NCBI RefSeq assembly: GCF_032341175.1
Contig: NZ_CP135435.1
Location: forward strand, 992,001 to 1,056,000
DNA: 64,000 nt
Reading direction: 5' to 3'
DNA from: Bacillus sp. DTU_2020_1000418_1_SI_GHA_SEK_038
GTDB taxonomy: Bacteria > Bacillota > Bacilli > Bacillales > Cytobacillaceae
Positions 1-29,565 of this stretch are shown in pieces; within the stretch, counting starts at the first letter, position 1, and each line of letters begins with the position of its first letter. The notes beneath the pieces are model-generated. The model searched no databases. It had not been told where the DNA came from and saw only the letters and a program-made list of their open reading frames with translations. The translations under genes were made by a program, and so were the position numbers.

Positions 1-480
1 GATTTTTCTGCACCATACTATTTATCAACGAATGAGATTCTAGTTCCAGAGGGCAGTGATATTAAGAGTGCAGCTGACTTAAAGAATGACAAGGTAGTGG
101 CAGTTCTTGGCGGAACGACTGGGGAAGCGGCAGTAGAGAAAATACTTGGAGTAAACAATAAAAACATTAAAAAGTTTGATAATAATAATTTAGCCATTTT
201 GGAATTAACGAGTGGCGGTGCAGATGCAGTAGTTGCCGATAATGCAGTAGTTCAGGCTTATGCCCAGAATAATCCAAACGATAAGCTAAATGTTATTAGC
301 GATAAAGAAGGCTTTGAAAATGAATTTTACGGCCTTATGTTTCCAAAAGGCAGTGAATTAAAAGCAGAATTTGATGTGGCTGTTACTGAGGTTTTGAAAA
401 ATGGAACTTATACTGAAATTTATAAGAAATGGTTCGGAGTAGAACCGGATGTTGAGACCATTTTAGCTCAGCAAAAATAA
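1..480 (+). CDS. Amino-acid ABC transporter substrate-binding protein, C-terminal part
   Basis: The gene is open from base 1, so its start and signal peptide lie outside the window; 159 residues are visible. The first visible residues, DFSAPYY, match the conserved DFSxPYY stretch of family 3 solute-binding proteins (SBP_bac_3), and GGADAVVADNAV and the C-terminal YKKWFG are also typical. The protein would be an extracellular lipoprotein that delivers a polar amino acid to the permease encoded just downstream. A hairpin separates it from the permease gene, a common way to make more binding protein than membrane parts. The substrate cannot be told from this fragment. Confidence 0.9.
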   Translation, partial: DFSAPYYLSTNEILVPEGSDIKSAADLKNDKVVAVLGGTTGEAAVEKILGVNNKNIKKFDNNNLAILELTSGGADAVVADNAVVQAYAQNNPNDKLNVISDKEGFENEFYGLMFPKGSELKAEFDVAVTEVLKNGTYTEIYKKWFGVEPDVETILAQQK

Positions 481-1992: not shown

Positions 1993-2008
1993 TGCAAAAT
2001 CCATCTGC
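1993..2008. promoter_or_regulatory. Upstream repeat copy 1, candidate enhancer-binding site
   Basis: TGCAAAATCCATCTGC here recurs as TGCAAAATTCATCTGC at 2072-2087 (15 of 16 bases identical, 79 bp apart). This copy sits inside a CCATGCA...TGCATGG inverted repeat (1990-2012). Both copies lie roughly 130-220 bp upstream of a sigma-54 promoter, where enhancer-binding activators normally bind. The role as an upstream activating sequence is inferred. Confidence 0.5.
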
Positions 2009-2071: not shown

Positions 2072-2087
2072 TGCAAAATTCATCTGC
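2072..2087. promoter_or_regulatory. Upstream repeat copy 2, candidate enhancer-binding site
   Basis: TGCAAAATTCATCTGC, the second copy of the 16-bp repeat, ends about 128 bp upstream of the -24 element at 2216. Two copies at this distance fit the pattern of paired activator sites for sigma-54 enhancer-binding proteins. No such activator gene is present in the window. Confidence 0.5.
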
Positions 2088-2215: not shown

Positions 2216-2232
2216 TTGGCACAGTTTTTGCA
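2216..2232 (+). promoter_or_regulatory. Sigma-54 (SigL) promoter of the hut-like cluster
   Basis: TTGGCACAGTTTTTGCA matches the -24/-12 consensus TGGCAC-N5-TTGCW exactly, with the invariant GG and GC at the right spacing. Transcription would begin near 2243-2246, about 37 bases before the hutU-like start codon. Sigma-54 promoters need an ATP-driven enhancer-binding activator, unlike the HutP antitermination known for B. subtilis hut. Confidence 0.85.
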
Positions 2233-2281
2233 ACAGTATTGATTAAGAAATTTAAATTTATCATTCAGGGAGGAAATACAC

Positions 2282-4003
2282 ATGTCTAAACCAGAAATCC
2301 TATATTCCGTTAAAGCACAAAGGGGACCTGAGCTTCGCTGTAAAGGCTGGAGACAAGAATCGATTTTACGGATGCTTGAAAATAATATGGAAAACGCTGA
2401 GAGGCCAGAAGAACTAGTTATCTATGGAGGGATCGGGAAAGCAGCCCGTAACTGGGAGTCTTACCACGCGATCGTAAAATCTTTAAAAGAGCTTGAGGAT
2501 GATGAAACTTTAGTTGTTCAATCTGGAATGCCAGTTGCGGTATTTAAAACCCATAAATATGCGCCGACAGTTGTCATGGCAACGACAAACATCATGAAGG
2601 CGGATTGGCCAACATTCTATGATTTACAAGATAAAAACTTAACCATGTATGCAAACTATACAGCAGCTCCATGGGAGTATATCGGTACACAAGGAGTTAT
2701 CCAAGGGACTTTCGAAACTTTATCAGCGATTGCTCGCCTTCATTACAATGATTCTCTAGTTGGAAAAATCCTTTTAACAGCAGGTGCCGGCGGAATGGGT
2801 GGAAACCAAACGAGAGCGATGACAATGCACGGCGGAGTTGCGATTTTATGTGACTCTAATGTTGAGATTATTAAGCGCCGTATTGAAAAGAAATTCATTG
2901 ATGTTTTAGCAGAATCATTGGATGAGGCTATCGCCATGGCAAAACAAGCTGCAGCAGAAGGCAAACCACTTGGTATTGCAGTAGTCGGAAACGCTGCAGA
3001 TATTTTTGAAGAGGTGCTTGAAAAAGGGTGGCTTCCAGACATCTCAACTTCTATGACACCAGGCCATGATCCAATTTCTTACTTACCAGCAGGCTACACA
3101 GTAGAGGAAGCAGAAAAGCTTCGTGATACAGATCGTACCCTTTACTTAGAAAAAGCACGCGAAACAATGATCCGTGAATTGAAAACGCTAATCAAATTTA
3201 TGGACTTAGGCGTTCACTCCTTTGAATACGGTACGAGTCACCGTAAAGAATGTGTCGATGCCGGTTTTGATCCGAAGGAAGCGAAGCGCCTTCCAGGCTT
3301 CGTAGCTGAATACATTCGTCCATTGTTCTGCGAAGGCCGCGGACCTTTCCGCTGGGTATGCTTATCCGGAGACGCAGAAGATTTAAGAAAAATTGATGAA
3401 ATGATTTTAGAAAAATTTGCAGATGATTACCTAGTTACTCGCTGGATCAAGCTAGCAATGAAGCATATTCCGATTGAAGCACTGCCAGCTCGTATTTGCT
3501 ACATGGGCTTCGGACAGCGTAAAGCATTTGCGCTAGAAGTAAACGATATGATCCGCCGCGGTGAGCTTTCTGGTCCGGTTGCATTCTCTCGCGACAACTT
3601 AGACTCTGGTTCAATCGTGAACCCAACATTCGAATCTGAAAATATGAAGGACGGCTCTGATTTAATCTCTGACTGGCCGGTATTGAATGGCCTATTAAAC
3701 GCAGTTGGTATGTGTGACTTAATCGCACTTCAAGCGAATTACTCAATGGGTGAAGCCGTTCACACAGGCGTAACGATGATCGCAGATGGAACAGATGAGT
3801 CTGATATGAGACTAGAGGTAGCGATGACGGTTGACTCTGGAATCGGAGTTGTCCGCCATGCACAGGCTGGCTATGAAATCGCACAAGATGTAGCAAATGG
3901 AAAAGGAAAATTAACGAAAGAAAGCATCAAAATCCCATTATGGTGGTCTCCAAAAGCAACATTTGGTCCTAAGGATTTAGAAAAAGAAGATGTGAAGGCT
4001 TAA
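2282..4003 (+). CDS. hutU: Urocanase-family hydratase, divergent HutU paralogue
   Basis: A 573-residue urocanate hydratase homologue; canonical enzymes are about 550-560. Family features are clear: CKGW near the N-terminus, YGGIGKAARNWE (48-59), IGTQG (134-138) and the Gly-rich AGAGGMGG NAD+ site (167-174). It departs from ordinary HutU at strongly conserved places: GGMGGNQTRA where canonical enzymes have GGMGGAQPLA, MYANYTAAPW for MYGQMTAGSW, RDNLDSGS for RDHLDxGS, and LQANYSMGEA (483-492) where HHGGGVGMG is expected. The fold and NAD+-dependent water addition are probably kept, but the substrate pocket is changed, so a modified urocanate is a likely substrate. The canonical comparison is from memory. 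Start ATG follows GGGAGGAAA. First gene of the sigma-54 operon. Confidence 0.85.
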   Translation: MSKPEILYSVKAQRGPELRCKGWRQESILRMLENNMENAERPEELVIYGGIGKAARNWESYHAIVKSLKELEDDETLVVQSGMPVAVFKTHKYAPTVVMATTNIMKADWPTFYDLQDKNLTMYANYTAAPWEYIGTQGVIQGTFETLSAIARLHYNDSLVGKILLTAGAGGMGGNQTRAMTMHGGVAILCDSNVEIIKRRIEKKFIDVLAESLDEAIAMAKQAAAEGKPLGIAVVGNAADIFEEVLEKGWLPDISTSMTPGHDPISYLPAGYTVEEAEKLRDTDRTLYLEKARETMIRELKTLIKFMDLGVHSFEYGTSHRKECVDAGFDPKEAKRLPGFVAEYIRPLFCEGRGPFRWVCLSGDAEDLRKIDEMILEKFADDYLVTRWIKLAMKHIPIEALPARICYMGFGQRKAFALEVNDMIRRGELSGPVAFSRDNLDSGSIVNPTFESENMKDGSDLISDWPVLNGLLNAVGMCDLIALQANYSMGEAVHTGVTMIADGTDESDMRLEVAMTVDSGIGVVRHAQAGYEIAQDVANGKGKLTKESIKIPLWWSPKATFGPKDLEKEDVKA

Positions 4004-4026
4004 TCATTTTTTCAAAATAATTAGGT

Positions 4027-4066
4027 GGCTCATAGGATTATTCCCTTTTGAGCCCCCAATCTTTTT
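4027..4066 (+). terminator. Weak hairpin between hutU-like and hutI-like genes
   Basis: GGCTCA (4027-4032) and TGAGCC (4049-4054) can pair and are followed, after CCCAAT, by a short T run. The stem is only 6 bp, so this is at most a partial terminator lowering transcription into the downstream genes. Confidence 0.4.
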
Positions 4067-4115
4067 AGAAGAGTCAAAATTACAGCTGGTTTGACTAAAA
4101 GGAGGTTTTTGTGAA

Positions 4116-5363
4116 GTGTCTGAAACGAAGGTCAAGTTAAATGTGGACATAGTGATCAGCAATGCATCTGAGGTCATTACATGTATCGGTGAGGGTATGG
4201 AGGAAATTGGTATCCTGACTGATGCATGGATTGCGATTAAGGATGAAAAAATTGTTGGAGTTGGAACAGAGGCAGAGGTAAAAAGTAATTTTGATTTGGA
4301 AGAGTCTTCTTTTATCGATGCAAAAGGTAAAGTGGTCGCTCCGGGGTTTGTTGATTCACATAGCCATTTAGTTTTCTACGGAACACGGGTGGAAGAATAT
4401 GCGGCTAAACTGACTGGGAAACCAGAAAAATTGGAGCAGCTAAAAATTACAACAGGCCCGAGCCGAACGGTTGAGCTTACACGCAACGAACCAGAAGAGG
4501 AATTATTCCAGCAATCCAAAAAACGCGTCATGACAATGCTTGAGCACGGAATCACAACAATTGAAAGCAAGAGCGGATACGGTTTAACGACGGAAAGTGA
4601 AATCAAAATTTTAGAAGTAGGCAGAAGGCTGGACAATGAAACACCGCTAGATGTGTTAAATACATTTTTAGGTGCACATGGATTTCCAGAGAATCTGACG
4701 AAAAGTGAGTATTTGGATGTCATCATCAACGAAATGATCCCTAAAGTCGGAGAGCAAGGACTAGCAGAATTCTGTGACGTTTGGTGTGACGAAGGCTATT
4801 TTACGGCTGAAGAATCTGAACTAATCCTGAAAGCAGGATTAAAATACGGAATGAAGCCAAAGATTCATGCGGATGCATACTCTTATATCGGCGGTTCTGA
4901 TTTAGCAGCGGAAATGAAAATGGTTTCAATCGACCATTTAAATTATACACCAGCTGAAGTCGTGGAAAAGCTGGCTGAGGCAGAAGTGACAGGTGTCTTA
5001 ATGCCAGCTTTAGATTTTGCTGTTGGTCATAAACAGCCTTTTGATGCTCGGCAAATGTTAGACAAGGGAATGGAAATCGCACTTGCGACAGACCTCTGCC
5101 CGGCTTGTTATACAGAGTCCATGCAGTTTGTTATTAATTTGGCATGCCGATTATATAAATTCTCCGTTGAAGAGGCAATCAAAGCTGCTACATATGGCGG
5201 AGCGAGGGCACTTGATTTAGATGACCGCGGCGTAATTCAGGAAGGAAAGCTAGCAGACTTGCAAATTTGGGATGTCCCAACCTATAAGCATATTGCTTAC
5301 GAGCTTGGAACAAATATCGTAGAAAAGGTCATTAAAAAAGGAAAAGTTGTTATTAGCCGCTAG
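4116..5363 (+). CDS. hutI: Imidazolonepropionase-family amidohydrolase, divergent HutI paralogue
   Basis: A 415-residue amidohydrolase-superfamily metalloenzyme. Metal ligands are visible: HSH (82-84), His251 in IHAD, His274 in SIDH and Asp326 in ATD. HutI normally opens the imidazolone ring to give N-formimino-glutamate. Here several substrate-contact motifs differ from canonical HutI: the residue after HAD is Ala254 where B. subtilis HutI has a Glu implicated in catalysis, ATDLCPACYTES replaces ATDxNPGSxPT, and the GGGIxSTVxATR loop is replaced by LKITTGPSRTVELTR. The divergence parallels that of the neighbouring HutU- and HutH-like proteins and suggests a substituted imidazolone as substrate. 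GTG start at 4116 follows AAGGAGG at a 10-base distance; an out-of-frame GTG at 4111 was discarded. Confidence 0.85.
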   Translation: MSETKVKLNVDIVISNASEVITCIGEGMEEIGILTDAWIAIKDEKIVGVGTEAEVKSNFDLEESSFIDAKGKVVAPGFVDSHSHLVFYGTRVEEYAAKLTGKPEKLEQLKITTGPSRTVELTRNEPEEELFQQSKKRVMTMLEHGITTIESKSGYGLTTESEIKILEVGRRLDNETPLDVLNTFLGAHGFPENLTKSEYLDVIINEMIPKVGEQGLAEFCDVWCDEGYFTAEESELILKAGLKYGMKPKIHADAYSYIGGSDLAAEMKMVSIDHLNYTPAEVVEKLAEAEVTGVLMPALDFAVGHKQPFDARQMLDKGMEIALATDLCPACYTESMQFVINLACRLYKFSVEEAIKAATYGGARALDLDDRGVIQEGKLADLQIWDVPTYKHIAYELGTNIVEKVIKKGKVVISR

Positions 5364-5396
5364 TCAATAGATTCATACAATTGGAGGGTTCAAAAA

Positions 5397-6563
5397 ATGA
5401 CAACAAAACATGCATCTAGTGCTGCAGAGTTTGTAAATGCGGATCGGTTACAGGAATTATTTCTAGAGTTAGCAAAAATTAATGCACCGAGCACGAAGGA
5501 ACAGCTTGTAGCTGATTATTTAGTGAAGGCATTGCCAAAACTTGGCTTTTCCATTGAGTTTGATGAGGCTCACAAAAACTTCGATGGAGAAGTCGGAAAC
5601 TTAGTTGCCTGGCATGAAGGTACTGATCCATCTATTCCGCCATTATTCTTCTCCACACATATGGATACAGTACTGCCAACTGAAGGGTTAAAACCTGTTA
5701 TTAAAGATGGTGTCATCCATTCTGATGGAACAACCATTTTAGGAGCAGACGATCGTGCAGCCTTAGCCGCTTACTTAGAAGCGATGAGAGCGATTATTGA
5801 AGGCGGTATTCCACATGGCCCGATTGAGTTCATTTTAACAGTCAATGAACAGCCAGGATTAGTCGGTGCAAGATACATGGACTACTCAAAAGCAAAAAGT
5901 AAAACAGGTTATATTTTTGACAGCAGTGGAGATGTAGGACAAATTATCCTAAAAGGTCCTTACAGCTCAAGGATTTGGATGGAAGTAGAAGGAAAGGCAG
6001 CACATATCGCTCTCAATGCAGAAGAAGGGAATAGTGCGTTTTTAATAGCCGCTGAAGGGTTAACAAATATGAAGTTAGGTACGATTGATGAGGAGACTCT
6101 AGCCAATATAGGAATTATTAAAGGCGGAGAACTGACTTCAATTATTCCTGGAAGTGTGACGGTTGCTGGGGAAGTTCGCAGCTTTTCAAAGGAAAAGCTT
6201 GATCAGCAGCTTGAGCATATGGCAGAAGCAATGAAACAAGCCGCTGAGAAAATAAGCGGCAAAGTAAATGTGAAAATTGAGAAGAAATACAGTGGATTTG
6301 ATATCCCTGAAAACGATATTCTAGTAAGAAATGCAGAAGAAGCGGCAAGAAATATTCATGTAAAGCCATATTTAACAGAAACACTCGGCGGGGCAGATAC
6401 AAATGTTCTAAATGAAAATGGTCTAACATGCTTAACCCTTGGCTTAGGCTTCCAAAATATTCATTCTTTCAGAGAATGCATTAGCATTGAGAACTTAGTT
6501 AACACTGGCAGACTAACAGCAGCTTTAATTGAACAATGGTATATAAATCATAAGGATAAATAG
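5397..6563 (+). CDS. M20-family metallohydrolase (PepT-like) with an altered metal-ligand motif
   Basis: A 388-residue M20 family protein resembling peptidase T/YqjE-like enzymes. The di-zinc motifs are STHMDTV (His88, Asp90), LGADDRAALAA (Asp118), the catalytic-Glu region and a C-terminal NIHS (His356). In the fourth motif most relatives have Glu-Glu (EExGLxGA); here it is Asn-Glu151-Gln152-Pro-Gly-Leu, so the general-base Glu is kept but the metal-ligand Glu is Gln. It lies 33 bases after the hutI-like gene with its own GGAGG site. Because the cluster has no formiminoglutamase (hutG), this enzyme could instead cleave the ring-opened N-substituted glutamate, or it could release the pathway substrate from a peptide. 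Both roles are inferences. Confidence 0.8.
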   Translation: MTTKHASSAAEFVNADRLQELFLELAKINAPSTKEQLVADYLVKALPKLGFSIEFDEAHKNFDGEVGNLVAWHEGTDPSIPPLFFSTHMDTVLPTEGLKPVIKDGVIHSDGTTILGADDRAALAAYLEAMRAIIEGGIPHGPIEFILTVNEQPGLVGARYMDYSKAKSKTGYIFDSSGDVGQIILKGPYSSRIWMEVEGKAAHIALNAEEGNSAFLIAAEGLTNMKLGTIDEETLANIGIIKGGELTSIIPGSVTVAGEVRSFSKEKLDQQLEHMAEAMKQAAEKISGKVNVKIEKKYSGFDIPENDILVRNAEEAARNIHVKPYLTETLGGADTNVLNENGLTCLTLGLGFQNIHSFRECISIENLVNTGRLTAALIEQWYINHKDK

Positions 6564-6637
6564 GTTAAGAGACTTTAGGTGTTATGATAGATTTTTAAAA
6601 AGACTGCACCTAGGACTAAACACAATCGAAGAAAATA

Positions 6638-6674
6638 TTACCGCTATTTCTTGTTAAGTCAAGAATAGCGGTAA
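6638..6674 (+). terminator. Hairpin between M20 gene and transporter gene
   Basis: TTACCGCTATT (6638-6648) and AATAGCGGTAA (6664-6674) form a perfect 11-bp stem that can be lengthened by CTTG/CAAG. No T run follows, so it is more likely an mRNA processing or stability element than a terminator. Confidence 0.5.
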
Positions 6675-6691
6675 AGGTTAATAATTGAGTA

Positions 6692-6731
6692 AATTTCATA
6701 TTGTATTCAACAGCTGATACACTATGAAATT
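6692..6731. promoter_or_regulatory. Imperfect dyad upstream of transporter gene
   Basis: AATTTCATA (6692-6700) is mirrored by TATGAAATT (6723-6731), with inner TGTAT/ATACA halves. It lies 48 bases before the transporter start. It may be an operator or an RNA stem controlling the distal genes separately; no known regulator consensus is recognised. Confidence 0.35.
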
Positions 6732-6778
6732 CATTCGATTATGAATATATGGATTCTTTAAAACAGAGGTGGGTTTGT

Positions 6779-8095
6779 ATGTTAAGTAATCCCGTACTAA
6801 TATCTGTTATCGTTTTATCTGTTCTAAGTCTAGCAAGAGTACATGTTATTTTTGCCCTATTAATTTCCGCCATTGTTGCTGGCTTAACAGCAAATTTAAC
6901 TTTATCAGATACAATCAATTCATTAATAAATGGTATGGGAGGGCAATCCTCTACGGCATTAAGTTATATTTTGCTAGGTATTTTTGCAGCCATGATTGCT
7001 TATTCCGGAATTACAACCATTCTTATTAATAAGTTGCTTGCCATGAAGAAGCAAAGTAAAATCTTGCTATTGCTGATGTTTGCTGTGATTGCTTGTTTAT
7101 CAGGAACGCTAATTCCGGTTCACATTGCGTTTATCCCAATCTTAATTCCTCCGTTATTACTATTTTTAAATTATTTAAAAATGGATCGCAGGGCAGTGGC
7201 TTGTGCACTCACTTTTGGGCTGAAAATGCCGTACATTGTCATTCCAGCAGGATACGGGATTATTTTCCATGGGATTATTGCTTCTGAAATGAAGGCGAGT
7301 GGACTGGAAATTGCTCAATCACAAATTCCGCTTGCAATGATCATCCCAGCGATAGGTATGTTTGTTGGTCTATTTATTGCAATGTTTATTTCCTACCGAA
7401 AACCAAGAGAATATGGTGAAGATCAAGTGATGGCTTTGGCTGAGGTGAGTGCTGCAGCAGAGACGCCAGCACGTAAACTGCAATTTAAGGATTTTATTAC
7501 AATCGGGGCAGTCGTTGCGGCATTAATCGTGCAATTACAATTTGGCTCGCTTGTTCTTGGAGCGTTAGCTGGGATCATTATCATGTTTGCCGGCAGAATT
7601 GTAACGTTAGGTGAAGGGGAGCAGATTGTCCAAGATGGTGTAAAATTAATGGGAGCGATTGCATTCGTTATGCTTATCGCATCAGGATATGCAGCTATAT
7701 TAAAGGAAACAGGGGCAGTTACTGAATTGGTTACAGCAGTTGACACTGTGGTAGGAGGCAGTAAATTTATTGCAGCTGTTGTACTACTGCTTATTGGTTT
7801 GTTAGTAACGATGGGGATTGGCACATCCTTTGGGACAGTTCCTATTTTGGCAGCCGTGTTTGTTCCGCTTTGTATCTCCATTGGGTTTAGCCCATTAGCT
7901 ACTGCTGCTTTAATCGGAACAGCAGGAGCGCTCGGTGATGCAGGATCTCCGGCATCGGATAGTACACTTGGACCAACATCGGGATTAAATGCAGATGGAA
8001 AGCATAATCATATTTGGGACACATGTGTACCAACATTCATTCATTACAATATCCCATTATTTATATTTGGCGTCATTGCCGCATTAGTTTTATAA
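6779..8095 (+). CDS. Na+/H+ antiporter-family (NhaC-like/YuiF-like) transporter of the hut-like cluster
   Basis: A 438-residue polytopic membrane protein with about 11-12 hydrophobic spans. It resembles the YuiF group of Na+/H+ antiporter-like proteins; GALGDAGSPASDSTLGPTSG near the C-terminus is characteristic of that family. In B. subtilis the hut transporter HutM belongs to a different family. Position between the catabolic genes suggests uptake of the pathway substrate (histidine or a histidine derivative) by cation exchange rather than housekeeping sodium export. Start ATG at 6779 is chosen because GAGGTGGG precedes it by 5 bases; an in-frame ATG at 6749 lacks a ribosome site. Substrate assignment is inference. 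Confidence 0.75.
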   Translation: MLSNPVLISVIVLSVLSLARVHVIFALLISAIVAGLTANLTLSDTINSLINGMGGQSSTALSYILLGIFAAMIAYSGITTILINKLLAMKKQSKILLLLMFAVIACLSGTLIPVHIAFIPILIPPLLLFLNYLKMDRRAVACALTFGLKMPYIVIPAGYGIIFHGIIASEMKASGLEIAQSQIPLAMIIPAIGMFVGLFIAMFISYRKPREYGEDQVMALAEVSAAAETPARKLQFKDFITIGAVVAALIVQLQFGSLVLGALAGIIIMFAGRIVTLGEGEQIVQDGVKLMGAIAFVMLIASGYAAILKETGAVTELVTAVDTVVGGSKFIAAVVLLLIGLLVTMGIGTSFGTVPILAAVFVPLCISIGFSPLATAALIGTAGALGDAGSPASDSTLGPTSGLNADGKHNHIWDTCVPTFIHYNIPLFIFGVIAALVL

Positions 8096-8148
8096 TACTT
8101 TTTAGAGTCTGAATTTTTAGTCATTTAAAATAGAGGAGTGGACAACTT

Positions 8149-9669
8149 ATGAGCAACAGTGGAATCGCAGGATTAGATGTAGTAGAACTTGATGGAGTAA
8201 CATTAGATCGACATAAGGTAGAAAAAATTGTTAGAGGTACTGCAAAAGTATCAATCCCAGAGGAAAACCGTCTAAAAGTTCGTGCAAGCCGAAACCGTAT
8301 TGAAAAGCAACTCAGTGACGGAAAAATTCTTTACGGTGTGAACACTGGATTTGGAAAGCTTAGCGATATAGAAATCGAGAAAGAAGATATCGAAAAATTA
8401 CAGTTGAACTTATTACGAGCAGATGCTGTAGGTGTTGGAGACCCTCTGCCTACTCCAGTTGTAAGAGCGATGATGACGTTGCGTGCAAATGCTTTAGTAC
8501 GCGGATTTTCTGGAATTAGAGAAGAAACTGTTCAACTGCTTATCGATATGATCAATGAAGGTGTGCATCCTGTCGTACCAAGCAAAGGTTCTGTCGGGGC
8601 CAGCGGTGATTTAGCGCCACTTTCTCATATCGCAATCGTTTTAGTTGGTGAAGGGAAAGCAGAATACAAAGGTGAAATTCTTCCTGGGGGAGAAGCTTTA
8701 AAACGGGCTGGATTGGAAGCGGTTACCTTACAAGCGAAGGAAGGACTTGCATTAATCAATGGAACACAGTGTATGTCTGGAGTTGGGGTTGTTGCTCTTA
8801 ACGAAGCGGAGAGAGTCGGTTTGGCAGCAGATATGGCAGCTTGCTTGACGATGGAAGCACTGCATGGAGTTATTTCCGCTTTTGATAGTGAATTACTTGC
8901 TGTCCGTCCACATCCTGAGCTTGAGTTCGTAGCTTCACGGATGAGAAAGTGGCTTGAAGGCAGTGAACGTATTACGCGTCAAGGGGAAATCCGCATTCAG
9001 GATGCTTACTCCATTCGCTGTATTCCACAGGTGCATGGTGCATCATGGCAAGCCTTTAACTATGTGGATGACCGTCTAAGGATTGAAATGAATTCCACTA
9101 CTGACAATCCAATCGTGCTAGAAAACGGGGAAGTTATTTCTGGAGGACATTTCCACGGTCAGCCAATTGCTCTGTCAATGGACTTCTTGAAAGTAGCAGC
9201 TGCAGAATGGGCTAATATTTCTGAGCGCAGAACGGAGAGACTAGTAAATCCGCAATTAAGTGGATTATCGCCATTCTTGGCTCCAGATCCCGGCCTAGAA
9301 TGTGGCCTAATGGTAGCACAATATGCAGCAGCAGCCCTAGTTTCTGAAAATAAAGTTCTTGCTCATCCAGCGAGTGTTGATTCCATTCCAACTTCTGCAA
9401 ATCAAGAAGACCATGTGAGCATGGGTACAATCGGTTCTCGTCAAGCAAGGGAAATCATTCATAATTCTGCTAGAGTCATAGCGATTGAAATGATTTGTGC
9501 TTCCCAAGCGATCTATTTAGAAAAAGCAGAAAGCCAGCTTGCTCCTGCGACTAGAGAATACTTAGAAAAAATAAGAGCCATTTGCCCGCCGTTAGAAAGT
9601 GACCGTGCCATTTCGGATCAAATGGAAGAATTGGCTCAGTTTATTTTGAGAGAAGATGTATTGAAGTAA
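8149..9669 (+). CDS. hutH: Histidine ammonia-lyase-family enzyme, divergent HutH paralogue
   Basis: A 506-residue MIO-dependent ammonia-lyase. The self-processing tripeptide Ala151-Ser152-Gly153 ([13 protein letters not shown]), Tyr62 (LYGVNTGFG), Asn204 (ALINGTQ) and Glu420 (NQEDHVSMG, the imidazole-specific form) are all present. Two pocket positions are abnormal. The Ser-His pair that marks true histidine ammonia-lyases (SHAxGVG) is Ala91-Asp92 (RADAVGVGDP), and the near-universal Asn of GGNFHG is His334 (GGHFHG). Loss of the selectivity His with the imidazole-binding Glu kept suggests an imidazole amino acid other than plain histidine. A normal HutH is encoded at 15.2 kb. Last gene of the cluster, with GAGGAG site and a strong terminator behind. 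Confidence 0.88.
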   Translation: MSNSGIAGLDVVELDGVTLDRHKVEKIVRGTAKVSIPEENRLKVRASRNRIEKQLSDGKILYGVNTGFGKLSDIEIEKEDIEKLQLNLLRADAVGVGDPLPTPVVRAMMTLRANALVRGFSGIREETVQLLIDMINEGVHPVVPSKGSVGASGDLAPLSHIAIVLVGEGKAEYKGEILPGGEALKRAGLEAVTLQAKEGLALINGTQCMSGVGVVALNEAERVGLAADMAACLTMEALHGVISAFDSELLAVRPHPELEFVASRMRKWLEGSERITRQGEIRIQDAYSIRCIPQVHGASWQAFNYVDDRLRIEMNSTTDNPIVLENGEVISGGHFHGQPIALSMDFLKVAAAEWANISERRTERLVNPQLSGLSPFLAPDPGLECGLMVAQYAAAALVSENKVLAHPASVDSIPTSANQEDHVSMGTIGSRQAREIIHNSARVIAIEMICASQAIYLEKAESQLAPATREYLEKIRAICPPLESDRAISDQMEELAQFILREDVLK

Positions 9670-9679
9670 TAAATATTGC

Positions 9680-9727
9680 GAAGTTGTCTATTAATCGGGT
9701 AATTGGATTAATGGACAACTTCTTTTT
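9680..9727 (+). terminator. Rho-independent terminator of the hut-like operon
   Basis: GAAGTTGTC (9680-9688) pairs with GACAACTTC (9714-9722), with an extra inner ATTAATC/GATTAAT pairing, then TTTTT. It closes the five-gene cluster. Confidence 0.9.
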
Positions 9728-9753: not shown

Positions 9754-10270
9754 GAAATTGTCATGGGAGGTTCATGGAACGTGTTTTGATAAGCAGACAT
9801 CGTAAACGGTTACCATGAGGAGTTCATGGATCGTATTTTTAAAAGAAATTGCTGTAACCGGTCTGCATGAATGGTTCATGAATCGCATTTTGATAAGTAG
9901 CCATCGCAAAAGGTTGCCATGGGGGATTCATAGATCGTGTTTTTAAAGAAATTGCTGTAAACGCTCACCATGAGAGGTTCATGGAACGTGTAATCGAAAG
10001 AAAGCTCCGCAAAGGCTCACTATGAGAGGTTCATGGAACGTGTTTTCAAAAGAAAGTACCCGAAACGCTCACTATGAGAGGTTCATGGAACGTGTAATCG
10101 AAAGAAAGCTCCTCAAACGCCCACCATGAGAGGTTCATTGGACGTGTAATCGAAAGAAAGCTCCTCAAACGCTCACCATGGGTGGTTCATGGAACGTGTA
10201 ATCGAAAGAAAGCTCCTCAAACGCTCACCATGAGAGGTTCATGGAACGTGTTTTCAAAAGAAATCACCTC
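9754..10270. repeat. Ten-copy 52-bp tandem repeat array
   Basis: The GGTTC core recurs at 9769, 9821, 9873, 9925, 9976, 10028, 10080, 10132, 10184 and 10236: spacing 52 bp throughout except one 51. Each unit carries a dyad of the form CACCATGA-N5-TCATGG. The first four copies are diverged and the last six nearly identical. The array fills the gap between the hut-like operon and topB, an 840-base stretch without a convincing gene. A 103-codon reading frame across it is an artefact of the repeat. A second array with the same unit plan lies at 41.1-41.6 kb. There are no spacers, so it is not a CRISPR. Confidence 0.95.
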
Positions 10271-10509
10271 AAATGGTCGTCATAAATCCCTCGTGAATCA
10301 TGAAAGCTCTATAAATCTTTTAATTCACCTCGAAAAACGATCTGCGATTCTCGTTAACATATTGTCGCACTCCTTTCCATTGTTAGTACATGCCTCTGGA
10401 GTGGACATGTCCTTTATGTCAAAAAGTGGAAGGTGGTGCAATGGATTATTCAGAAAAACAGCCTGTATGTTATATTTAACTTACGTAATTTGAAAGGATG
10501 TTTTTTAAA

Positions 10510-15140: not shown

Positions 15141-15235
15141 ATCTCACTAATGTACTGAGGAGGAAGGAAATGGTTGTTTTATCTGATCACACTTTAACAT
15201 TAAAGGAAGTTAATAACGAACTGAGGGGGAAGGAC

Positions 15236-16729
15236 ATGGTTACATTAACAGGAAATTCATTAACATTAGAGGAAGCAAGAAGGATTTTATTTGAAAAAGA
15301 AAAGGTAGAGGCATCTAAAGAAAGTATGGTAGCCGTGAAGGAAAGTCATGATGCTGTAAAGAAGATTGTGGAGGAAGAAAGAGTTATTTATGGAATCACT
15401 ACAGGATTTGGGAAGTTTAGTGATGTTCTTATCGATCAGAAGGATGTAAAGGATTTACAGCTTAACCTTATCCGGTCACATGCTTGCGGAGTGGGAGAGC
15501 CATTTCCTGAGCCCGTCTCACGTGCCATGCTCCTATTTAGAGCGAATGCCTTGTTAAAAGGGTTTTCAGGTGCAAGACCCGTTGTTATTGAAAGATTGCT
15601 TGAGCTTGTGAATAGAGAAATCCACCCGGTAATTCCACAGCAAGGCTCGTTAGGAGCTAGCGGGGACTTAGCGCCGCTTTCTCATTTAGCTTTAGTTCTT
15701 GTCGGAGAGGGGGAGGTTTTTTACAAAGGAGAGAGAAAACCTTCCCTTGAGGTACTGATGGAAGAGGGCTTGGAGCCGCTAACGTTGGAAGCAAAGGAAG
15801 GTCTGGCTCTCATTAATGGTACACAGGCAATGACGGCTATGGGCGTTGTTGCGTATTTAGAAGCGGAAAGACTGGCCTACCAAAGTGAATTAATTGCGGC
15901 TGTGACAATGGAAGGATTAAATGGGATTATTGATGCCTTCGATGAAAAAATTCATTTGGCTAGAGGATATAAACAGCAAGTAGAAACAGCGAAAAGAATG
16001 AGAGAGTACTTATCGGGCAGCGGGCTCATCACGAAGCAAGGGGAAATTCGTGTTCAAGATGCTTATTCGATTCGTTGCATTCCACAGGTTCACGGGGCTT
16101 CATGGCAAGCATTAGACTATGTGAAAGAGAAGCTTGAAATTGAAATGAATGCAGCAACAGATAATCCGCTTATTTTTGACCAAGGGGAAAATATCTTTTC
16201 AGGCGGAAATTTCCATGGACAGCCGATCGCACTTGCCATGGATTTTATGAAAATTGCGGTTGCAGAGCTTGCTAATATTTCTGAACGCCGAATTGAAAGG
16301 TTAGTAAATCCCCAGTTGAATGACTTGCCGCCGTTTTTAAGCCCGGAACCAGGACTTCAATCTGGTGCTATGATTCTTCAATACTGTGCGGCTGCTTTAG
16401 TTTCTGAAAATAAAACTTTAGCTCATCCTGCTAGTGTTGATTCAATTCCATCTTCAGCAAACCAGGAAGATCATGTCAGTATGGGAACAATTGCCGCAAG
16501 ACACGCTTATCAAATTATACAGAACGTGAATAATGTTCTAGCAATTGAGTTGATTTGTGCGCTTCAGGCTGCAGAGTTCAAAGGATTTGAAAAAATGGCG
16601 GAGAAAACAAAGAAATTTTATTTAGAAGCTAGAAAGGTTGTGCCATCTATTACAAAGGACCGGATTTTCTCGAAGGATACGGCAGCTTGTGCTGCTTGGC
16701 TGAAGGAGATTGATATAAACCTTCTGTAG
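15236..16729 (+). CDS. hutH: Histidine ammonia-lyase (canonical)
   Basis: A 497-residue MIO ammonia-lyase with all histidine-specific features: Ser81-His82 (SHACGVGEP), Ala141-Ser142-Gly143, [13 protein letters not shown] and [10 protein letters not shown]. It converts histidine to urocanate plus ammonia. The C-terminal half closely resembles the B. subtilis enzyme as I remember it ([20 protein letters not shown]). An in-frame ATG at 15170, also with an excellent AGGAGG site, would add 22 residues; that stretch is a tandem copy of the true N-terminus ([14 protein letters not shown] beside [14 protein letters not shown]), ribosome site included. I place the start at 15236 because family members begin there. 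It is apparently monocistronic, with no hutU, hutI or hutG beside it. Confidence 0.93.
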
Positions 16730-29369: not shown

Positions 29370-29500
29370 TGAGATAAGCTTCAGAAAAAGGCAAACCTAT
29401 TGAAAGATAGGGACGCAAAGTCACAGGTCTAAAGTATGAATGAAGTGTTCTTTTTTAAGATTTGCTGCATAAACTCATTATAGCAGGCAGCTCATAGAAA
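29370..29500 (+). promoter_or_regulatory. Cyclic di-GMP-I (GEMM) riboswitch upstream of sinI copy 2
   Basis: The conserved core is clear: GGCAAACC, stem TAT-TGAAAGA-TA with its GAAA tetraloop, then GGGACGCAAAG and GGTCTAAAG (29390-29434). The following P3-like helix is formed by TATGA and TCATA around AGCAGGCAGC near 29483-29492. This is the layout of class I c-di-GMP aptamers. Downstream, AGGCA...TGCCT (29501-29534) makes a strong stem and AATACG/CGTATT a second one just before the GGGGGG ribosome site. Whether it switches by termination or by hiding the ribosome site cannot be settled by eye. A SinR-box match GTTCTTT lies inside at 29447. Confidence 0.83.
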
Positions 29501-29565
29501 AGGCAGATTCCATACCAAGATGGCTGGATTGCCTGGAATACGATTCGTATTTTGGGGGGAAGAGT

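What the first reader, a model, noticed from the sequence alone, without database searches (positions are those of the whole stretch)
2216..9727. Hut-paralogue operon likely degrading a modified histidine
Seen: one operon encodes HutU-, HutI- and HutH-like proteins plus an M20 hydrolase and a transporter, and all three Hut homologues differ from the canonical enzymes at normally invariant motifs (HutU GGMGGNQTRA and LQANYSMGEA; HutI HAD-Ala and ATDLCPAC; HutH Ala-Asp for Ser-His and GGHFHG). A canonical HutH is encoded separately at 15.2 kb. Known: hut-like pathways for ergothioneine and for N-methylated histidines have been described in bacteria, as I recall. Inference: this cluster takes a histidine derivative such as N-methylhistidine, hercynine or ergothioneine through a urocanate-like route to glutamate.
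Basis: partly seen in the sequence, partly recalled or inferred. Interest (0 to 1): 0.92.

Follow-up and report, generated by a model that had tools for sequence, protein, structure and literature searches.

The report
Likely N-tau-methylhistidine degradation operon and regulon
This stretch encodes a second, altered copy of the histidine-breakdown pathway with its own switch and uptake systems, most likely for eating a methylated form of histidine; a pathway of this kind appears to have been described already, but its control system and the misleading gene names are worth noting.

Summary
Window 2282-9669 encodes HutU-, HutI-, M20-hydrolase, NhaC-like transporter and HutH-like proteins, bounded by a sigma-54 site (2216-2232) and a strong terminator (9680-9722). 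The host also has canonical HutH, HutU, HutI and HutG. The three Hut-like proteins form clades apart from the canonical enzymes, and 40 of 40 relatives with the Ala-Asp HutH carry the same HutU-HutI-M20 set. The HutH-like enzyme keeps the MIO tripeptide that ergothionase-like lyases lack, and the HutU-like enzyme is below the thiourocanate and S-methyl-thiourocanate model cut-offs. That argues against ergothioneine and hercynine and for a ring-modified histidine with a free amino group. Best reading: the N-tau-methylhistidine pathway of Beliaeva, Atac and Seebeck 2022; I saw only that reference, and its content is recalled. New here: the unit reaches about 10 kb upstream, with a divergent sigma-54 activator, a second HutU (96% identical) and two ABC transporters. 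Four transcription units share an enhancer-like motif whose 9 genome-wide exact copies all lie in this cluster. The cluster M20 proteins have Glu-Gln where relatives have Glu-Glu (41 of 41 rows). The substrate is inferred, not assayed.

The parts
97..480 (+). C-terminal part of the amino-acid ABC transporter binding protein (whole gene is L006:17620-18480, begins before the window)
   Evidence: SBP_bac_3; has its own sigma-54 site and three enhancer-like motifs upstream in L006
528..1208 (+). amino-acid ABC transporter permease
   Evidence: BPD_transp_1; this transporter lies inside the operon, between HutU and HutI, in L034, L035, L037 and L040
1205..1927 (+). amino-acid ABC transporter ATPase
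   Evidence: ABC_tran
1994..2008 (+). enhancer-like motif GCARWANNNATCTGC, copy 1 of the HutU2 operon
2073..2087 (+). enhancer-like motif GCARWANNNATCTGC, copy 2 of the HutU2 operon
2216..2232 (+). sigma-54 -24/-12 promoter site TTGGCACAGTTTTTGCA
   Evidence: exact match; pattern occurs 15 times in the genome against 0 for the reversed control pattern
2282..4003 (+). HutU-like hydratase, proposed N-tau-methylurocanate hydratase (copy 2)
   Evidence: hutU model 649 bits; below NF058530 and NF058531 cut-offs; own clade
4116..5363 (+). HutI-like amidohydrolase, proposed methylated imidazolone-propionate hydrolase
   Evidence: hutI model 385 bits; Glu to Ala at residue 254, aligned to B. subtilis HutI Glu252; own clade
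5397..6563 (+). M20 PepT-like hydrolase, proposed to split N-methylformimino-glutamate
   Evidence: TIGR01883 322 bits; Glu-Gln where relatives have Glu-Glu; present in 40 of 40 relatives
6749..8095 (+). NhaC/Na+:H+ antiporter-family transporter, proposed uptake or product export
   Evidence: PF03553; in 18 of 40 relatives, other transporters in some of the rest
8149..9669 (+). HutH-like MIO lyase, proposed N-tau-methylhistidine ammonia-lyase
   Evidence: hutH model 661 bits; Ala-Ser-Gly kept; Ala-Asp for Ser-His; own clade
9680..9722 (+). intrinsic terminator of the operon
   Evidence: hairpin followed by a T run, -23.6 kcal/mol, z -7.3
15170..16729 (+). canonical histidine ammonia-lyase (contrast, not part of the unit)
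   Evidence: Ser-His, GGNFHG, ASG; falls in the canonical clade

Best explanation
The cluster is a dedicated catabolic regulon for a ring-methylated histidine, most likely N-tau-methylhistidine (3-methylhistidine). Proposed route: ABC and secondary transporters import it (inferred). The MIO-type HutH-like lyase removes ammonia to give N-tau-methylurocanate (inferred from family and retained catalytic residues). The HutU-like enzyme hydrates this to the methylated imidazolone-propionate (inferred). The HutI-like enzyme opens the ring at the N-tau side (inferred). The M20 enzyme, in place of HutG, splits N-methylformimino-glutamate to glutamate and N-methylformamide (inferred, weakest step). A divergent sigma-54 activator turns on four transcription units through GCARWANNNATCTGC sites (motif and promoter sites shown; binding inferred). 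Shown here: the genes, their separate clades, fixed substitutions, conserved co-occurrence, the parallel canonical set and the shared promoter architecture.
For: Three enzymes each form one clade apart from canonical. 40 of 40 Ala-Asp HutH loci carry HutU-, HutI- and M20-like partners of this type; none of the other 39 loci of the scan shows such a partner in the listing. A canonical-type HutU coexists in 18 of 18 cluster-bearing genomes looked at (20 of the 79 loci were given; in 2 of the 18 it is in pieces) and in 10 of 10 genomes with a cluster-type HutU score among 151 of the family, so the cluster does not stand in for histidine catabolism. The MIO tripeptide is kept, unlike the lyases beside thiourocanate hydratases, so a primary-amine substrate is expected. 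The changed dyad is the Ser/His substrate-switch motif, and a G. kaustophilus H82L mutant had no activity on histidine (PMC11432326, passages). All 9 genome-wide copies of the enhancer-like motif lie in the cluster. One Neobacillus operon, and by gene number and size probably a second, inserts a HisC-type aminotransferase and hydroxyacid dehydrogenases, which suits an imidazole amino acid. [quoted passage not shown] content recalled).
Against: No assay and no substrate-bound structure. The published enzymes' sequences (recalled as from 'Bacillus terra') could not be compared. Nothing in the sequence excludes N-pi-methylhistidine. The HutU-like clade is sister to thiourocanate hydratases (100/99), which could hint at another ring substituent, although long branches are present. 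The Asp aligned to a HutI metal-site Asp is Asn in 5 of 41 rows, unexplained. Two relatives (L050, L051) have over 4 kb upstream of HutU without the activator and no sigma-54 site there, so the control is not universal. The M20 step rests on position and motif change alone.
Confidence: 0.75

Rival explanations
1. The substrate is N-pi-methylhistidine (for example from anserine), giving N-methylglutamate and formamide by the same chemistry.
For: Same gene set and the same MIO argument would apply.
Against: Changes lie at the HutH Ser-His site and at HutI Glu254, which I place, by inference, on the N-tau side where HutI breaks the ring; the published precedent is N-tau (reference seen).
Confidence: 0.08
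2. Ergothioneine, hercynine or S-methyl-ergothioneine pathway.
For: The HutU-like clade is sister to thiourocanate hydratases and shares some residues with them.
Against: HutH-like keeps Ala-Ser-Gly, while the 4 ergothionase-like lyases found beside thiourocanate hydratases (4 of 8 regions fetched) lack it and lie far away in the tree. HutU-like scores 603 against a 930 cut-off and 642 against an 880 cut-off, whereas 7ned scores 1011.
Confidence: 0.03
3. A second, differently regulated pathway for ordinary histidine.
For: The three Hut-like proteins pass the NCBIfam hut equivalog cut-offs.
Against: Uniform changes at the substrate-switch dyad and HutI Glu; long separate clades; a complete canonical set is present in the genome.
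Confidence: 0.05
4. Another ring-modified histidine with a free alpha-amine, not yet known as a nutrient.
For: Sequence evidence fixes only a ring change and a primary amine; HutU shows 75 columns fixed differently.
Against: A named precedent with the same logic exists (reference seen).
Confidence: 0.09

Closest known systems
N-tau-methylhistidine degradation pathway (Beliaeva, Atac, Seebeck 2022; reference seen, content recalled)
   Same: As recalled: Hut-like lyase, hydratase and ring-opening hydrolase in soil Bacillota, ending in glutamate and N-methylformamide; an extra hydrolase fits that end
   Different: Identity of the genes could not be checked; the sigma-54 regulon, second HutU and transporter set are described here from sequence
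Canonical hut pathway (TIGR01225, TIGR01228, TIGR01224, TIGR01227)
   Same: Same families, MIO tripeptide, HutI metal-site His aligned, general step order
   Different: Substrate-facing motifs changed, separate clades, M20 enzyme where HutG would be expected, sigma-54 sites
Ergothioneine degradation (ergothionase, thiourocanate hydratase NF058530)
   Same: HutU-like is sister to thiourocanate hydratase; paralogue pathway logic
   Different: Lyase keeps the MIO tripeptide; HutU-like is below both specific cut-offs; lyase of other descent
PepT-like M20 peptidases (TIGR01883, PDB 3gb0 and 3rza)
   Same: 40% identity to a paralogue in the same genome; most aligned site residues kept
   Different: Glu-Glu motif is Glu-Gln in 41 of 41 cluster rows

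Membership tests
N-tau-methylhistidine degradation pathway | HutH-, HutU- and HutI-type enzymes distinct from canonical, in one cluster | tested here: met
N-tau-methylhistidine degradation pathway | lyase acts on N-tau-methylhistidine; products glutamate and N-methylformamide (products recalled) | not testable with these tools
   needs assays; the 2022 paper is not held
N-tau-methylhistidine degradation pathway | orthology to the published enzymes | not testable with these tools
   published sequences not at hand; the search for homologous proteins was off
Canonical histidine ammonia-lyase | MIO Ala-Ser-Gly tripeptide | tested here: met
Canonical histidine ammonia-lyase | Ser-His substrate-switch dyad | tested here: not met
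   Ala-Asp in 41 of 41 against Ser-His in 54 of 54
Canonical histidine ammonia-lyase | falls in the canonical clade | tested here: not met
   41 rows one clade, SH-aLRT 96, apart from the Bacillales canonical clade
Canonical urocanate hydratase | TIGR01228 cut-off | tested here: met
   649 against 375 bits
Canonical urocanate hydratase | falls in the canonical clade and keeps AQPLA and HHGGGVG | tested here: not met
Canonical imidazolonepropionase | Glu of the HADE motif | tested here: not met
   Ala in 41 of 41 against Glu in 51 of 51; one more distant canonical-type row outside that set has Gln there (L090)
Thiourocanate hydratase NF058530 | score over 930 bits | tested here: not met
   603 bits; positive control 7ned 1011
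S-methyl thiourocanate hydratase NF058531 | score over 880 bits | tested here: not met
   642 bits
Ergothionase | lacks the MIO tripeptide (recalled as its mark) | tested here: not met
   HutH-like has Ala-Ser-Gly; the 4 distinct ergothionase-like lyases beside thiourocanate hydratases do not; they were not compared with PDB 6s7j
PepT-like M20 peptidase TIGR01883 | score over 274 bits | tested here: met
   322 bits
PepT-like M20 peptidase TIGR01883 | Glu-Glu (general base and metal ligand; roles recalled) | tested here: not met
   Glu-Gln in 41 of 41 rows; Glu-Glu in the paralogue, 3gb0 and 3rza
Sigma-54 enhancer-binding activator | Sigma54_activat domain, GAFTGA loop, Fis-type HTH | tested here: met
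   PF00158 and PF02954; GAFTGA read in the sequence

The most novel reading that the evidence does not exclude
The M20 proteins of this cluster, with their uniform Glu-Gln motif, are a new kind of M20 enzyme that hydrolyses an amidine (N-methylformimino-glutamate), and the whole unit is a four-promoter sigma-54 regulon for a histidine derivative that may not be the published one.
Probability: 0.15. Interest if true: 0.7.

Novelty: new member of a known kind. Interest (0 to 1): 0.45.

Why it matters
N-tau-methylhistidine comes from muscle protein and is used as a marker of its breakdown (recalled). A clean gene signature (Ala-Asp HutH, NQTRA HutU, HADA or HTDA HutI, NEQ or YEQ M20) would let databases stop naming these enzymes as ordinary histidine enzymes, and predicts which Bacillota can use this compound. 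The nine-site motif, confined to the cluster, makes the regulator directly testable and could serve as a methylhistidine sensor.

Tried and rejected
Ergothioneine and hercynine: rejected on the MIO tripeptide, model cut-offs and trees. Plain histidine isozymes: rejected on fixed substitutions and on the canonical set in the same genome. Literature: ten searches, all ten allowed; judged from listings, some capped (7: 20 of 21 listed; 70: 10 of 206; 82: 12 of 439), I saw no open paper that describes these genes. One search (N-methylformamide with methylhistidine) gave one paper, on simulation of protein modifications; (methylhistidine with Bacillus terra or Siminovitchia terrae) gave none. In one search none of the 12 listed papers holds methylhistidine. 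The 2022 paper itself is not held.

NF058530 over 398 Bacillota genomes gave 0 over the cut-off, so thiourocanate hydratases were found with 7ned instead: 9 loci at 70-81% identity in 398 genomes of the class, none in the host at the threshold used. Eight of those nine regions were fetched: four hold an ergothionase-like lyase, two (L170, L173) hold another lyase that also lacks Ala-Ser-Gly and was not counted, two (L172, L174) showed none. No exact 9-mer is common to the three upstream regions; the gapped motif was seen by eye in that output and then tested, so it was chosen after looking, with the genome-wide count and the reversed control as the check. The 12 sigma-54 pattern matches elsewhere in the genome were not looked at. 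No structure prediction was run, because coordinates would not have been readable for pocket work.

Rows dropped or doubled: one search left out rows with an internal stop or under 75% length (number not recorded); kept were 138 HutU, 130 HutH, 96 HutI and 43 M20 rows. Trees used chosen subsets: 95 and 54 of 138 HutU, 104 of 130 HutH, 78 of 96 HutI; one search holds one gene twice (L022 and L180). In one search one lyase row (L175, the same gene as L162) and two other-lyase rows (L088, L092 second copies) were labelled canonical, which accounts for the label not being one clade. Searches counted five HutU genes twice (L176-L180 overlap other loci); one search repeats both counts on the 40 loci alone, and those are the numbers used.
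Full report
OBSERVATION. The five genes and all quoted motifs are present.

BEYOND THE WINDOW. The host genome (one contig of 4.47 Mb) has three HutU matches, two HutI over the cut-off, two aromatic-lyase genes and one HutG over the cut-off. Canonical HutU and HutI sit together at about 430 kb, canonical HutH at window 15170 and HutG at 4335 kb. Just upstream of the window (L006) lie a divergent activator with PAS, sigma-54 interaction and Fis-type domains, a second HutU-like gene (552 of 573 residues identical), a branched-chain-type ABC transporter of five genes, and an amino-acid ABC transporter whose last genes open the window.

CONSERVATION. A scan of the genome collection gave 79 loci (best 80 of 97 kept, and the scan needs exact peptide words, so remote relatives can be missed). 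In 40 of the 79 the HutH-like protein has Ala-Asp, and 40 of those 40 have HutU-, HutI- and M20-like genes nearby. The activator was seen in 28 of 40. Of the 12 without it, most start too close to HutU to show it, and wider stretches of three of their genomes (those of L022, L062 and L073) do hold it; L050 and L051 have over 4 kb upstream and no activator there. The transporter varies: NhaC-like in 18, amino-acid ABC in 13, branched-chain ABC in 6; Gate-domain, amino-acid permease and sodium symporter types were found among the proteins scanned. Three loci (L058, L059, L061) are sister forms with Ser-His and without the partners. The set is patchy: 10 of 151 genomes of the family, host included, judged by score band, and 3 of 398 of the class, host included, at a strict threshold.

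PHYLOGENY. HutU-like: 47 rows, one clade, SH-aLRT 100, long stem, sister to thiourocanate hydratases (95; 100/99 without the outgroup). HutH-like: 41 rows, one clade, SH-aLRT 96, next to the sister forms and then the Bacillales canonical clade, far from ergothionase-like lyases. HutI-like: 41 rows, one clade, SH-aLRT 100. The tool warns of long branches, so the HutU-thiourocanate link is likely but not certain.

ACTIVE SITES. HutH-like keeps Ala-Ser-Gly and the Tyr, Asn, Gln, Tyr, Arg, Phe, Met and Glu positions seen in the aligned motifs, but changes Ser-His to Ala-Asp. In work on a G. kaustophilus HAL this Ser/His pair is called a substrate switch motif and H82L had no activity on histidine (PMC11432326, passages). 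HutI-like keeps His249 (B. subtilis numbering counted) and Asp324 in 36 of 41 rows, but replaces Glu252 with Ala and changes the segment after the Asp. M20: Glu-Gln in 41 of 41 rows (38 NEQ, 3 YEQ) where the paralogue, 3gb0 and 3rza have Glu-Glu.

SUBSTRATE. The four ergothionase-like lyases found beside thiourocanate hydratases (4 of 8 regions fetched) lack Ala-Ser-Gly, in keeping with loss of trimethylamine rather than ammonia (recalled for ergothionase). The HutH-like protein keeps it, so a primary amine is expected. The ring opens between the carbonyl and N-tau (established hut chemistry, recalled), so a methyl on N-tau would leave N-methylformimino-glutamate and explain a new last enzyme. 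[quoted passage not shown] I saw that reference in the reference lists of three papers and recall, without having read it here, that the organism was called 'Bacillus terra' and the products glutamate and N-methylformamide. PMC11432326 names N-tau-methylhistidine among HAL substrates, citing it. The name beginning 'Bacillus terra' resolves in the taxonomy to Siminovitchia terrae. Two Neobacillus operons (L042, L049) place four extra genes between HutU and HutI. Those of L042 were identified as a HisC-type aminotransferase (over the TIGR01141 cut-off), a D-2-hydroxyacid dehydrogenase, a sodium symporter and an Ldh_2 dehydrogenase; those of L049 match in number and size only. This suggests feeding in of keto- or hydroxy-acid forms.

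REGULATION. Exact sigma-54 sites stand before HutU1, the amino-acid ABC operon and HutU2, and a one-base variant before the branched-chain ABC operon. The exact pattern occurs 15 times in the genome, its reversed control 0 times. In the 40 relatives, of 42 HutU-like genes with enough upstream sequence, 32 have a strict -24/-12 site, 7 a relaxed one and 3 (L050, L051, L057) none; random 320-base windows of the same loci gave 24 of 2000 strict and 82 of 2000 relaxed. A gapped motif GCARWANNNATCTGC occurs 9 times in the genome, all on the + strand, all in this cluster, before the four units (2, 2, 3 and 2 copies); its control occurs 0 times. In the 40 relatives it occurs 34 times in 16.8 kb upstream of HutU-like genes against 11 times in 828 kb elsewhere, and 27 of 42 upstream regions have one. 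The 11 others lie in L022, L026, L039, L049 and L062, before ABC-transporter genes or, in L049, before HutI (positions). The exact motif was not found in 15 of the 42 regions, among them those of the more distant members (L050, L051, L053-L056). Binding by the activator is inferred.

DUPLICATE HutU. Seven of 18 cluster-bearing genomes have two HutU-like copies. In the tree some pairs are next to each other and some split by copy, so duplication or gene conversion has probably happened more than once. The need for extra hydratase is unexplained.

VERDICT. The pathway kind is, on recall, already published. The regulon, its confined motif, the M20 change and the misleading equivalog names are the additions.

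Noticed in passing
window 9762-10273: Tandem array of a 52-base unit, about 10 copies, between the operon terminator and the next gene.
   Followed up: no
window 29380-29536: c-di-GMP-I riboswitch, 70.4 bits.
   Followed up: no
L006:10266-11987 and window 2282-4003: Two HutU-like copies, 552 of 573 residues identical, separated by two ABC transporters; two copies also occur in 7 of 18 cluster-bearing relatives.
   Followed up: partly
L050, L051, L053, L054, L055 (HutI-like genes): The Asp aligned to a HutI metal-site Asp (B. subtilis 324) is Asn in these 5 of 41 rows.
   Followed up: no
L042:2565-7307 and L049:2267-7063: Four extra genes inside the operon; in L042 a HisC-type aminotransferase, D-2-hydroxyacid dehydrogenase, sodium symporter and Ldh_2 dehydrogenase; in L049 judged by number and size only.
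   Followed up: partly
L023:11631-12833, L026:11610-12797, L056:7054-8238: A second M20 gene (TIGR01891 amidohydrolase over its cut-off, below the CpsA cut-off) near or in the cluster, possibly freeing methylhistidine from acyl or peptide forms.
   Followed up: partly
L058, L059, L061: HutH sister forms (two from Alicyclobacillus, one from an unclassified Bacillota) with Ser-His but GGQFHG or GGHFHG and no cluster partners, possible intermediates.
   Followed up: partly
L050, L051: Cluster members without the activator in over 4 kb upstream and without a sigma-54 site before HutU, so probably under other control.
   Followed up: no
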